Source: Sclerodactyla briareus (Eukaryota; Echinodermata; Holothuroidea; Dendrochirotida; Sclerodactylidae). Taken from it: a DNA stretch of 64,000 nt. Each line of letters starts with the position of its first letter. The stretch's first letter is position 1. Position numbers and translations under genes: made by a program. Below, one piece after another: positions 31,512-52,600 of the stretch. The stretch spans positions 124,001-188,000 of the forward strand of contig JAODTK010005509.1 of NCBI GenBank assembly GCA_026419785.1, given 5' to 3'. The notes below the pieces were generated by a model, which saw nothing but the letters and a program-made list of their open reading frames with translations, was not told where the DNA came from and searched no databases.

Positions 31512-31644
31512 ATGGGGATGAACGCATCGTTCGAAGGATCCGATGACGATGGGTCCTATGTTTCCATGGGAAGCAAGCCCGAGGACATGGAGGAGGAGTC
31601 AAATGTGAAACAGGGAGCCGGGGACAATCATGAGACTGTTGGAG
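31512..31644 (+). CDS. SLC3A1: SLC3 candidate first coding exon 1a
   Basis: ATG at 31512 opens 44 codons, [20 protein letters not shown] then [19 protein letters not shown] and HETVG, with one extra base before the donor gtaaga (31645), i.e. phase 1. The shared exon 2 starts in the matching phase. The peptide is acidic and hydrophilic, like SLC3 cytoplasmic tails. There is no homologue that I can recall by sequence, so the assignment rests on phase, composition and position. Confidence 0.5.
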
Positions 31645-34600
31645 GTAAGAATCATTCATGTAAACGGGAAAGACATTGGCTGAAGGCAGTTTTCAGCCCC
31701 TTGGATGTGAGAATCATTCATAAGGTGAGATAAGGTGGTCGTGGGGCAATTTTATGATCCTATTGAAAGTGAGAATACTTTATATTCAGATATATCCGGA
31801 AGTGAATGTGGCCAACAGCGGTTATGATTCCATTGGAGGTAAGGATTATCCAATGTATACGGGAGAGGAGTGGCTGAGGGCCATTTATGAGCCCTCGAAA
31901 TGAGAACCATATATCGAGAGTGAGGGTGGCCAACGGTGGTTATGAGCCACTTGCAGGTAGAATCATCCATGTTACAGGAGAGACGGTCTCGTGGAAGTTA
32001 TGAGCCCATTGGAGGAAATACAGTTTCATGTTCACACGAGAGAGAAGGTGACTCATGAAGTTTCAATCAGCGGACCGACGAAAAGGTCGCTGGAATAATT
32101 TGGTCGCTAATTTTGAATTGAGGCTGTCGCGGTAGATATCAGTAGTCAATACACTAATCATATTGTGCAGCAGCAGTTGGGCGGCTCTGATTGCTGCTAC
32201 TGCTGAAATGCTGGTAACTCCCGAAACGGAACTATAACTAGGTTGACAAACCAATTGTACAAAACTATTTAAAAAAATATACACGGGTGCATGAGTAATG
32301 GGTATCTGATTTGCTATACTCAACTCCTGGTGGTCTCAAAGAGTGATCAGTGACCGTGCTATTGATATGGTCACAGGGACGTGTTTCTTCTTCTCCGATT
32401 GAACGATTTTTTTTTGGATTGTATATTTTTCCACCTTGTTGTATGTCTCAATGTATAGGGCGACCGAATTGACTATGATACTCCACTCCAAAATTGGTCT
32501 GACGAGAGCTTGCTCCTTGCCTGATTCAGAAACAGCTCTACAGATCACGGTAAGGAACCCAATCAGTCGTTGAAAACCTTCGAACAAACCTTGTTTTACA
32601 TGGCTTTTCCACACTTCACTCGTAGTTTCCATATCTTTCCTGATTTATTGGGCATTGATGTAGAACGATATTCCCGCAAAGCCAGTTGTGGGCTCTCCTT
32701 GATTACAATTATCTGTGTGAATCCATTGGTGCTGTTGCTCCATTTTTCCAGAGAGTCGAGGAATCGCTTTGGCACAGTCGTCTTTGTCGAGATGATGTTT
32801 TTCTCGATTTAACACAGGCAGCCGTCTGCGAATAGCCGTATCGATGATCTGATGTCGCCCGCCATGTCATTGTTACCAGTAGCAGGCGTAGTGACCGAGA
32901 ATGTATCTGCAGTCCCACGATGTATAATGGATGAATTTATTACAGTATAATCCAGAGAATAGCCACAGAAATACCTATAAAAGAAAAAAAAACACAGCGT
33001 TCGGCAAAACGAATAGCAAAGTTGCACTGTTGCAAACTTTGCTTGCCTTTGTGACAATTTTGAGAGGTAAGGTTCGTAGTCAGGGGTGGAAAATTCGAGA
33101 CGACACACGCTTTTACCTAGGTTTTTGGGTTGGTCACGAGTGGTGTATGAGGTGTATGGACTGAATAAGTTGTTTTGTGCTCGTTGTGTACTTCGGAAAC
33201 ATTTCGATTTCACACTGTGGAAAAGTCCGGGCGTGGTAAACCATATTTTACCAGCAAACAAGAGAAAATGTGGAGTGTGGGTAAACACACACAGACATTA
33301 GATCTCAACCTCGTTTAGGTCCCTCTCCAATCCCTTGTGCTGATCGCCCCAGGCCCAAGAAGAAGACAACATGTTAAAAAATTTGGCATTAACCCGACTG
33401 GGCTGGGATTCGAACCCCAATCTCCCGAGTGAAGCTCTATCAATCGTGCAACCACTTCGTTTAGTACGCATCATCATGATTCTGTCTCGTGACGTAGTCT
33501 AATAAGAAGAATTGACCTGTAATAATACAGATTTTAAAAAGTCTAGCAACCATGCACGTCCGGCGTTGCTGTTAAGGACAAGTTCAACTTGGGAGGTGCA
33601 CTTCTCGGTTCGTCATAAAAACAGTAGGTCTTTTCACGGTGTAAGTGGTGCACGTCCAGCAGTTCGGGGGTTAAGACGAGATTCACAGCTCTATCATCAC
33701 GGTCTATTTTTAAACCGTAACAACTATTGAAACGCAACAATTATCCCATCTTTCCGGGTGCTATTGTTGATTAGTATGGAGGGGGGAGCGGGTTGTGTAA
33801 AGTTTTGTGCTGGTAGGATGTGTAGATTACATCAGGGGTGTTTCAAAATATTATTGGCATATGTATAGGTGGCAGCGCGCGAGCAGTCAGTGTACACCTA
33901 TGACTGAAGAATAATGAACAAGCATTAGCATTCACTACTGTAGTTAATGCGCTTCTTGTAAGTGACGCCTTACCGTAGCTTTCATACACATCGTGATGAA
34001 TGGTGCTGCATATGTCAAAGCTTGACTGGTGTTAACAACAGAGCTCTCTAAGTGACCAGAAAGCCAAAAGGCTTAGTGATTACTTGACTCAAGATTCAAG
34101 AACAAATGGGATAAACGGAATGATAAACACCAACCTCCAGCTCGATAGGACCAAGAGTTTCTGAACTTATCGTATCCATAAGATTTCCAGTCTTTGACCT
34201 CTGCTGACCTCAGATAACCTTTTGGCCAAAACGATAGGGATGATGGTCTCATCATGGGAAGCCACATCCAAGTGGATACATCCAGGTGGGGCCCAGTATT
34301 GTGTTCACAAGCTAAAATTGCCGGAATATCAGATTTTCACAATTACTATTTTACAAAAAATTGACTTCCGCTCTGCAGTAAGAACGATAGGGTCCTTGTA
34401 CCCCGCCCCCCCCCCCCCCCTGTACCCCCCTCCCCTCATGAGGAAGCTGTATGCCAATTTTCATCCTGATCGAACCTAGCGTTTGGGACTTATCGTGTCC
34501 ACAGGGTTTCCAGACCTTGACCTCTCTTGCCTCAGATGACCTTTGACGGGACCCCAAAAACAATGAGGATCATGTACTCATCACGAGGAACCCACATACT

Positions 34601-49600: not shown

Positions 49601-52600
49601 TTCGTGATGGTCTGAGAATCCAGGTAACTTGTTTCAACGACACACTTATGCGGGCCATGTTTTTGAAGAAGGTTACAAAAATTTTGGGCATGCGATTAGT
49701 GCTATTAGTGATATTATGGTAAATAAAAATCCACAAAGATGAAAATGTATGAGAGTTCACTCAATTCCTTGTCAGATTAACATTCGTAAAGCTTGTCAAA
49801 TTGGAGGCCATCCTGGTCCACCAGTTTCTATGATAGACACCAGCACTCAGAACGCTCGCGCCCTTGAGTCTGTCAATTCAGTTTGAGATTGTTCATCTGG
49901 GTGAAAACGTGATCATCTGAAATTAGCTCGAAGCACTCACCACCTGTTGTTTCAGTGACGCGATCTTCTCTATTAAAGTTGAAACCAGGAGGAGAGATTT
50001 CATTACTGTTTATAGTCGGGTCGATGCCAGATTCCTACTCCACAACAATATTTGGCTTGTAGGTTTCAGTAAGGTGCTATGGTCAGCAGCGTTTGTACGA
50101 CACTTTGGCAATTGGCCAAGGATACATTTGATAGTGTTCACAAGGTCCGGGTTTGGTGGACATCTGCCACTATCAGGATACACAGGGCAGGTGATTGAAT
50201 TGAAGTGTGTTTGAAGTTCTTAGATTCGGAGACTAAGGAAACTTTGAATGGATAAGATCCAGAATGCTTCCCGTATGCCTCTGGCTAGGAGCGGGATCAA
50301 GCAGGACTCGGGGCACTTCCACTCTCCATATGTTAACTGAGGTTCCAATGTCCAATGGTCTGGGTGGGTCACACATTACGAGCCCTTGATGCAGTTTTCA
50401 GAATAAAAGTTTCTACTTACTGTCTGAGATCCACTACCCTGGTTTCTTCTCATGATGGGAGCAGGATAAGTTCAGCATGAAGATTAAGAATACTGTGCTA
50501 ATACTAACACTAGGTTTGGCACGTATAGGATATAGGGTTATATAGACTAGTACTGTGGAAGGCTGCTGTATATGCTGCTAAAAGCAACGGTAATGCTGGG
50601 GATCTTTACCCAAGTCTAAAAAAAAAACATCTAAAACTCAAAAAGTTTAAAAACACCCCCAAGTCGATACTTTATGCTGGTTTGTGAAATGGGCTCTTTC
50701 ATGAAGGTTGAGATAAAAATCTTTCTTTTCAGGGGAGCATTTGGATGATTTTTCTTGCCACTTTTTTTTGACAAAGGCTTCAACCAGAGAATCCACAAAC
50801 TCGGCAAGTATTTCAGCATTATCCGCAAAGTCCAAGTATGAAACCCGACTCCACCGAATGAATCTCCGCACTCGGTACTCTTTGCGACTCCCTCCGTCCT
50901 CCATAATCCAGTCCATACAGTTGAGGGGTGGAGCTGGCGTACCCCCCTGTTTCACACCCGTAACAGCGGAGAAGAAAGTAAGAGACACGACCAACTCACT
51001 CTCAGCATACGGAAGTTAAATAATTTACAAGACAGAGGTTGGCACACCACGCTGCCCAAGAATTCACCAGAGAACCTCTCTGCACACAGACGAAAGTCTT
51101 GCAAACATCTATACAGACTACGAAAAGCTCCTACGGAATTCCTGCATCCGCCCTCAAACAGTACCCGGAAACCAAGATGTATCAATAGGACTTCTTGGGA
51201 CGACACCCTGCTCAGGACGCTGATGCGCAAGCAGCTGTCGGTTTCTGTTCAGTTTGATGCTTCCAGTGCTACTTGGTGTAATTGCGATGACCTAACAGCG
51301 CGCGGTACCTAACGCGAAGGTGGCTCGAGAACCTCCAGGGGGTTTTCACGTCTATTGATATTTACCTAGCCTATGTTGTTTGTTTCTTGGTCTACAGGGA
51401 TGGGGAAGGATGCAGTGATGCAGTACTCGAACACCCCATTCTGGAGGGCCCTACGTTGGACCCTCCTGATCATCCTGGTTGCTGGTTGGCTGGCCCTCCT
51501 GGGGGCTTCTATTGGGATTATCGCTTACAAGTCCCAGGTGTATACCTGGTGGCAGTCCTCTGTCATATACCAGATATACCCCAGGTCATACCTAGACGGG
51601 AACCCGACCCAAACGGTCCGGGAATCGGGGAATTGCGGGTTAAAATCGGTCATTGTGTATATGGATTAGATAGAGTATTGCGGCGGTGATGGTGGTGTAT
51701 TAGGTTGCTAACTGGCAGTATAGTAGGGACAGTTGAAGTGATTAAGCTAGTGATAATATAGAGATAATGGTAGGAGTGTGGTAGGAACTGCCCATTTTTA
51801 AAAGTTGCAGTTCGTATGTATGAAATGAAAATAGAATCACTTTTCCGAGCGGAACGTGCAAGAAAGTTTGCAAATTCTTCGAACATATGTGAAAAAAAAA
51901 CAAGCAATTCTTCAGGTTTTAATGCATCTCTGCCACTAACCTTGAATAGGGGTCCGTGATCCCTGCCCGAGTTTCACTTTTCCTTGCAGAATTGTCATGG
52001 TGTCTTGCCCAATTTGTTATCTTTTTTAGGTGGGCATTTTCCTCTGCCCTCACCTCGTACGCCAGTCATGAGTAGTAGTAATATCAAAATGTGGTAGTCT
52101 TAGTATAATAACAATAGTGACGATAGTTATAGTGACAGTAGTAGCAGCAGCCGTAAGTTCAGTGGTGTTAGTTGGTGTATTAGTTTAGTCTATTACTACC
52201 ACAACTACCACCACTACTACTACTACTACTACTACTACTACTACTACTACTAATAATAATAATAATAATAATCATAATAATATAATAATATAATAATAAT
52301 AATATAATAATAATAATAATATAATAATAATAATAATAATAAAATAATAATAATAATAAAATAATAATAATAATAATAATAATAATAATAATAGTAATAA
52401 TAATATTACCGATGCATGATCTCACCAATTTTAGGAATCACTCAGAAGCTCGAATACATCAGTAAACTTAACGTTGACGCGATTCTCCTCAACTCCATCT
52501 ACAAGTCACCGGACAAGGATTTCGGCTATGATGTCAGCGATTTAATGGACGTTAACGAAAACTTTGGCACCATGGATGATTTCCAGGCGTTGGTCGATGA

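What the first reader, a model, noticed from the sequence alone, without database searches (positions are those of the whole stretch)
31512..51402. Three alternative first coding exons with the same splice phase for one SLC3 heavy chain
Exons at 31512-31644, 41312-41435 and 47518-47653 each start with ATG, encode short acidic tails with no shared sequence, and end in phase 1 at a good donor. Exon 2 needs exactly one base from upstream. Three independent matches in length modulo 3, spread over 16 kb, suggest promoter choice that swaps the cytoplasmic tail. In SLC3 proteins the tail carries interaction and trafficking signals. Exon 1b has a TGA, so it is the weakest.
Basis: partly seen in the sequence, partly recalled or inferred. 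Interest (0 to 1): 0.7.

Follow-up and report, generated by a model that had tools for sequence, protein, structure and literature searches.

The report
Alternative starts of an SLC3 gene
An animal gene for an amino-acid-transporter helper protein seems to have two or three possible beginning exons that would give it different inner tails, but the assembly is error-prone and no transcript was available to show which are used.

Summary
The SLC3 gene is real: an rBAT-like heavy chain on the + strand (exon 2 at 51398, eight coding segments to 62969; best PDB match human rBAT, 240 bits), downstream of a SEC23 gene. Exons 1a (31512-31644) and 1c (47518-47653) are as described: ATG-started, acidic, phase 1, strong donors. 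In a blind ATG-to-donor scan they rank first and second between the two genes; 0 of 100 and 3 of 100 simulations reach their scores. 1b is misdescribed: its good donor CAG|GTATGT follows 41434, not 41435, so it is 123 nt, phase 0, with an in-frame TGA. Yet 1b looks exon-like, with a frame switch inside.

Two things change the interpretation. First, 1a and 1b have good acceptors 17 and 14 nt before their ATGs, so they are probably not first exons; 1c has only a poor one, and a TATA box. Second, HSC70 and SEC23 in this assembly also show frame switches and stops, so matching phases and the TGA carry little weight.

Best reading: proximal exon 1c against distal exons 1a and/or 1b, swapping only the outer part of the cytosolic tail. 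Unproven; ordinary in kind.

The parts
31495..31644 (+). exon 1a as an acceptor-flanked exon (150 nt, phase 1 in and out); possible start ATGs at 31512 and 31518
   Evidence: blind internal-exon score 24.3, reached in 0 of 100 simulations; minus-strand maximum 12.1 and reversed-sequence maximum 15.6; acceptor TTTCTGATTAG| top 1.15% of AGs; donor GAG|GTAAGA 10.0 bits; one place in the genome
41298..41434 (+). exon 1b, corrected borders (137 nt); ATG 41312, in-frame TGA 41390-41392; coding signal moves to the +1 frame near 41375
   Evidence: acceptor top 1.85% of AGs; donor CAG|GTATGT 9.65 bits; codon signal by frame; internal-exon score 16.4, reached in 6 of 100 simulations; one place in the genome
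47376..47383 (+). TATA-box-like site (TATATAAG), 142 nt before the 1c ATG
   Evidence: one of 9 TATAWAAR on the + strand of 64 kb (11 on the minus strand); no TATAWA within 300 nt upstream of the 1a or 1b ATG
47518..47653 (+). exon 1c, coding part of a proximal first exon (136 nt, phase 1 out)
   Evidence: donor ATG|GTGAGT 10.1 bits; AG before it ranks at 37%; first-exon score 16.4, 3 of 100 simulations; one place in the genome
51398..51638 (+). exon 2: juxtamembrane helix and transmembrane segment; own in-frame ATG at 51400; 3' end uncertain (frame switch, no good donor)
   Evidence: Pfam SLC3A2_N 45.4 bits for exon 2 alone, cut-off 27; rBAT match; donors at most 4.1 bits in 51540-51760; GPGIGELR motif lies in another frame
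52435..52615 (+). exon 3 (ectodomain)
   Evidence: aligns with rBAT; acceptor and donor
55730..55872 (+). exon 4 (ectodomain)
56693..56816 (+). ectodomain exon between exons 4 and 5; 3' limit is that of the protein match
   Evidence: tblastn with an rBAT segment, E 1.6e-5; acceptor top 0.9%
58177..58412 (+). exon 5 (ectodomain); a partial second copy lies at 57950-58048
59696..59908 (+). exon 6 (ectodomain); its presumed acceptor is poor (rank 26%)
61501..61686 (+). exon 7 (ectodomain)
62840..62969 (+). exon 8 (ectodomain), with an internal frame switch after MQW

Best explanation
The locus is one rBAT-like SLC3 heavy-chain gene with at least two alternative coding beginnings. A proximal promoter (TATA-like site at 47376) starts exon 1c, which splices in phase 1 to exon 2. 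Distal transcription, from an unseen 5' UTR exon upstream of 31.5 kb, enters acceptor-flanked exon 1a and possibly 1b, and then joins exon 2. Both routes keep the juxtamembrane helix, transmembrane segment and ectodomain and change about 45 residues (more if 1a and 1b are used in series) of the outer cytosolic tail, where trafficking or partner signals could sit. Shown: the gene, exon-like signals for 1a and 1c, phase fit of 1a and 1c, acceptor-like sites before 1a and 1b. Inferred: that both routes are transcribed, the promoter use, and any functional difference.
For: Blind scans put 1a and 1c above everything else between the SEC23 end and exon 2. Codon score and acidity match coding tails. 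Both give the conserved Gly-Met by joining G to GG, and Pfam SLC3A2_N rises from 45.4 bits (exon 2 alone) to 51.1 (1a) and 50.2 (1c). 1c has a TATA-like site and a poor acceptor; 1a and 1b have good acceptors and no TATA. Each of the three was found at one place only in the genome. No other SLC3 exon was found upstream in the window, so 1a is not the head of a tandem copy.
Against: No RNA evidence and no related genome. Tail peptides have no significant similarity to rBAT or 4F2hc tails (summed p: 1b 0.09, 1a 0.36, 1c 0.98; 1a against the sheep tail alone 0.05), so membership in this gene rests on position, phase and signals. The Pfam gain of 5-6 bits is small, had no shuffled control, and the short 1b reading gains 3.8 too. 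Synonymous-codon scores alone are only moderate. The exon scans miss most known SLC3 exons, so an unseen neighbouring gene cannot be ruled out. Exon 2 and exon 8 contain frame switches: read literally, no start gives a full protein.
Confidence: 0.5

Rival explanations
1. 1a and 1b are consecutive exons of one long distal tail, not alternatives to each other; 1c is the only alternative, or is itself unused.
For: 1a leaves in phase 1 and, entered in phase 1, 1b's acceptor (41297) gives the frame of its ATG; coding signal in 1b begins at the acceptor, before the ATG. Both carry acceptors.
Against: 1b's exit at 41434 is phase 0 in its ATG frame and phase 2 in the frame that carries the late coding signal; exon 2 needs phase 1, so at least one further base error is required. 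The pre-ATG signal rests on four codons.
Confidence: 0.2
2. Only 1c is used by the SLC3 gene; 1a and 1b belong to a separate small gene or to an untranslated leader, or are dead exons.
For: 1c is the nearest exon, has a TATA-like site and fits in phase. No significant homology ties 1a or 1b to SLC3. 1b carries a stop.
Against: Apart from 1b and 1c no candidate between 31.6 and 51.4 kb on the + strand that such a gene could use scores above 4.9 in the two scans, although the scans are not sensitive. 1a exits in the phase that exon 2 needs.
Confidence: 0.2
3. The upstream exons are leader sequence and translation starts at the ATG inside exon 2 (51400).
For: In-frame ATG two bases after the acceptor.
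Against: It would leave about 20 residues before the transmembrane segment and waste open, coding-like frames in 1a and 1c; human rBAT has 66 residues before the same Gly.
Confidence: 0.05

Closest known systems
SLC3A1 / rBAT (heavy chain of system b0,+)
   Same: Best PDB match over the transmembrane segment and ectodomain: 240 bits, against 204 for the next kind of chain (6k5p, named binary toxin receptor protein; a glucosidase-type protein by recall) and 198 for the best chain named glucosidase. Shared juxtamembrane GMxK....Q(F/Y)S and the WWQ...YQIYPRS stretch.
   Different: The rBAT cysteine (KCLDWWQ) is valine here (QVYTWWQ); tails not alignable with significance; the candidate first coding exons are separated from the transmembrane exon by 3.7 to 19.8 kb.
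SLC3A2 / 4F2hc / CD98hc N-terminal isoforms
   Same: [quoted passage not shown] That these differ in the N-terminal tail is recalled. Works like it if 1a and 1c are both used.
   Different: Sequence is closer to rBAT (43 against 28 bits over the N-terminal part); use of the alternatives is not shown here.

Membership tests
SLC3 heavy chain (rBAT/4F2hc type) | SLC3A2_N juxtamembrane and transmembrane region | tested here: met
   PF16028 45.4 bits for exon 2 alone, cut-off 27; the only one of 5 scored places in the genome over the cut-off
SLC3 heavy chain (rBAT/4F2hc type) | GH13-like ectodomain closer to rBAT than to glucosidases | tested here: met
   rBAT 240 bits; next kind of chain 204, best chain named glucosidase 198 (query joined across a frame switch)
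SLC3 heavy chain (rBAT/4F2hc type) | Cysteine just outside the membrane for the bond with the light chain | tested here: not met
   [13 protein letters not shown] against rBAT IIALSPKCLDWWQ; covalent assembly is therefore not claimed, only an SLC3-type heavy chain by homology
Active GH13 alpha-glucosidase | Catalytic nucleophile Asp and the NHD motif (motifs recalled) | tested here: not met
   GVDGLNIQG aligned with rBAT GVDGFSLDA, and GNHE in place of NHD; the assembly is error-prone
Alternative first exon with N-terminal swap | Two or more transcript 5' ends, each with a coding exon in a compatible phase | tested here: inconclusive
   Phase compatible for 1a and 1c, not for 1b at its good donor; acceptors before 1a and 1b argue that they are not first exons; no RNA data
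Alternative first exon with N-terminal swap | Conservation of the alternative exons in related species | not testable with these tools
   The genome tool states that this genome has no relatives there; each of 1a, 1b and 1c was found at one place only in the own genome

The most novel reading that the evidence does not exclude
A single rBAT-like heavy chain lacking the usual cysteine uses three unrelated acidic tails (1a, 1b, 1c) from distal and proximal promoters to do in one gene what vertebrates split between rBAT and 4F2hc.
Probability: 0.08. Interest if true: 0.5.

Novelty: new member of a known kind. Interest (0 to 1): 0.28.

Why it matters
If confirmed, it would show alternative cytosolic tails in an rBAT-like heavy chain and give a natural set of tails to test for sorting signals. 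More generally it is a caution: in a draft with frequent one-base errors, equal splice phases and single stops are weak evidence, and acceptors and codon usage should be checked before exons are called 'first'.

Tried and rejected
Tandem SLC3 copy upstream (1a as the head of another gene): rejected; of six other SLC3 exons tested, none has a second copy in the window except the partial exon-5 copy, and a genome search with four of the exons returned 5 places, all in this gene (that search scores only the best candidates). 1a as a repeat-borne false exon: 1a's donor lies at the edge of a degenerate repeat of about 60 bp (by eye; two copies 78% alike), but the stretch was found at one place only and most of the exon lies before the repeat. 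Tail homology: 1b read across its frame switch looked like the rBAT and 4F2hc tails in phmmer (46-47 against 43-44 bits, and 32.9 against 28.4), but shuffled controls gave p about 0.09, so it is not claimed. The 1a plus 1b tail alone matched no PDB chain at E up to 10. Phase matching as strong evidence: rejected, since the minus strand gives as many phase-1 frames. Gene decay as the reason for the frame switches: less likely than assembly error, because HSC70 (at least 7 frame switches in about 1.7 kb) and SEC23 (a frame switch and a double stop) show the same; a decayed HSC70 copy is not excluded. The SLC3A2_N hits L002-L005 are below the family cut-off. Organism: COX1 not found, species not identified. 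PF00128 (alpha-amylase) did not complete. Papers: six searches (one search found none, and searches list only their top 10 or 20) showed no title on alternative first exons of SLC3A1; only listings, and passages of four papers, were seen.

Corrections made on the way: the 1c-exon 2 junction was typed with one Gly too many; repeat it correctly, and the earlier impression of a matching Tyr was dropped. The training set had pieces with stops, one of them in the wrong frame; one search repeats it corrected.
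Full report
What is there. The window is contig C2756:124001-188000 of a 319 Mb, 3171-contig assembly. Two genes on the + strand were recognised in it. The tail of a SEC23 gene occupies the start (Pfam gelsolin repeat; matches to a recalled SEC23A up to 5263 and a last coding stretch at 7495-7539). From 51398 on lies an SLC3 heavy chain: exon 2 carries the juxtamembrane helix and transmembrane segment (Pfam SLC3A2_N, 45.4 bits for exon 2 alone), and ectodomain exons follow at 52435, 55730, 56693, 58177, 59696, 61501 and 62840. The joined protein (438 residues, without the 56693 exon) matches human rBAT best: 240 bits, against 204 for the next kind of chain (6k5p) and 198 for the best chain named glucosidase. 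A genome search with four of the exons returned five places, all in this gene (it scores only the best candidates), and no other SLC3 exon was found upstream in the window.

The three candidate exons. 1b is not. The GT of its good donor begins at 41435, so the exon ends at 41434 and is 123 nt long from the ATG, phase 0; its frame has a TGA at 41390-41392; a weaker donor after 41396 would be phase 1.

Are they more than chance? Phase-1 ATG-to-donor frames are not rare: 5 on the plus and 5 on the minus strand of the 20.4 kb stretch, against a simulated mean of 1.07. But 1a and 1c are the only two of the 15 such frames in the whole window (7 plus, 8 minus) with net charge -5 or lower; in 300 simulations of the 20.4 kb stretch, -9 or lower arose in 0 and -5 or lower in 2. 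Charge was chosen as a measure after seeing the exons. With codon scores trained on conserved exons of the same genome (926 codons), 0 of 201 null frames reach 1a, 1 of 201 reaches 1c, and 0.87% of 462 shorter null frames reach 1b up to its TGA; with synonymous codons only the figures are 6.5%, 2.5% and 17.5%. In a blind ATG-to-donor scan of the window the plus-strand order is three known SLC3 exons, 1a (19.9), 1c (16.4), a SEC23 exon (14.8), 1b in its second frame (13.5), and next 9.0; the minus-strand best is 7.2. Of 100 simulations of the 43.7 kb between the genes, 0 reach 19.9 and 3 reach 16.4. The codon model was trained partly on SLC3 exons of this window, so the high rank of those exons is partly built in; 1a, 1b and 1c were not in the training set. 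The scans are not sensitive: with the limits used, the internal-exon scan lists only 1 of the 8 SLC3 exons.

First exons or internal exons? 1a and 1b each have an acceptor-like site 17 and 14 nt before the ATG, ranked in the top 1.15% and 1.85% of 3565 AGs; the AG before 1c ranks at 37%. Known exons of this gene range widely: exon 2 0.3%, the 56693 exon 0.9%, exon 7 1.6%, exon 5 2.1%, exon 8 3.2%, exon 4 4.8%, exon 3 7.8%, exon 6 26%, so a poor score does not exclude an acceptor at 1c. Scored as internal exons, 1a (31495-31644, 150 nt, phase 1 in and out) reaches 24.3, above all 100 simulations, while 1b (41298-41434) reaches 16.4, which 6 of 100 simulations also do. Conversely 1c has a TATATAAG 142 nt upstream (9 TATAWAAR on the + strand of 64 kb, so one within 200 nt by chance is a few per cent), and 1a and 1b have none. 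So 1c looks like a promoter-proximal first exon; 1a and 1b look like exons preceded by an unseen 5' exon, or by a trans-splice acceptor, which cannot be told apart here.

How far can phase be trusted? Not far. An HSC70 gene of the same assembly shows at least 7 frame switches in about 1.7 kb of matched coding sequence, and SEC23 in this contig shows a frame switch (upstream of the window) and two adjacent stops in conserved stretches. The SLC3 gene itself switches frame at the end of exon 2 (GPGIGELR in another frame, no donor above 4.1 bits) and after MQW in exon 8. In 1b the coding signal moves from the ATG frame to the +1 frame near 41375 (10-codon windows). So the TGA of 1b may be an assembly error, and equally a 'match' of lengths modulo 3 is weak evidence. 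1a and 1c are credible because of their content, not their phase.

Mechanism. Best supported: proximal exon 1c and distal exon 1a (with or without 1b) are alternative beginnings of one heavy chain. Both deliver the G that with GG of exon 2 makes the conserved Gly before Met. What varies is only the tail before that Gly. In solved complexes the cytoplasmic helix of the heavy chain touches the C-terminus of the light chain (PMC8537225, passages read); the matching helix here is in exon 2 and therefore common to all forms (inference from the alignment). A swap would act on distal signals such as sorting or partner binding; this is inference. A review passage gives four transcript splice variants for human SLC3A2 (PMC10562705), and PDB entries name isoforms 2 and 5, so alternative forms of an SLC3 protein are known in kind; that those differ in the tail is recalled.

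What could not be decided. No transcript, no sister species. Tails have no significant similarity to rBAT or 4F2hc tails. The serial reading 1a-1b is in frame at their junction but misses the phase of exon 2 at the exit. Whether the gene is intact depends on re-called sequence. A second, 4F2hc-like gene is not excluded: L002 has a weak SLC3A2_N hit (19.4 bits, cut-off 27).

Verdict. Ordinary in kind; modest interest.

Noticed in passing
51517-51555: The position of the rBAT cysteine just outside the membrane is valine ([13 protein letters not shown]), with no other cysteine in the exon 2 reading used, and the ectodomain lacks the GH13 nucleophile (GVDGLNIQG), so this may be a non-covalent, non-enzymatic heavy chain.
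   Followed up: partly
57950-58048 and 58177-58412: Exon 5 has a second, partial copy upstream (33 residues, 94% identical, with its own acceptor) whose 3' part diverges and has no good donor (best 5.0 bits): a partial exon duplication or an assembly artefact.
   Followed up: partly
495-7539: 3' end of a SEC23 gene on the + strand, with in-frame stops (LAG**VRLC) that point to consensus errors in the assembly.
   Followed up: yes
31632-32050: Degenerate repeat of about 60 bp, several units with a donor-like GGAGGTAAG or similar, beginning at the 3' edge of exon 1a (by eye; two units 78% alike; not reported by TRF).
   Followed up: partly
L002:1486-1638: Weak SLC3A2_N hit on another contig (LGWLGYISIIVVSAVALFIPPKCR), possibly the transmembrane exon of a second, 4F2hc-like heavy chain that keeps a cysteine.
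   Followed up: no
53985-55599: A unit of about 413 bp repeated 3.9 times, 95% matches, in the intron between SLC3 exons 3 and 4.
   Followed up: no
41968-42534, - strand: Open frame of 189 codons on the minus strand without a Pfam match at E up to 1.
   Followed up: partly
L022-L025: Amino-acid permease (PF13520) fragments elsewhere in the genome, candidate light chains; one has a TGA inside.
   Followed up: no
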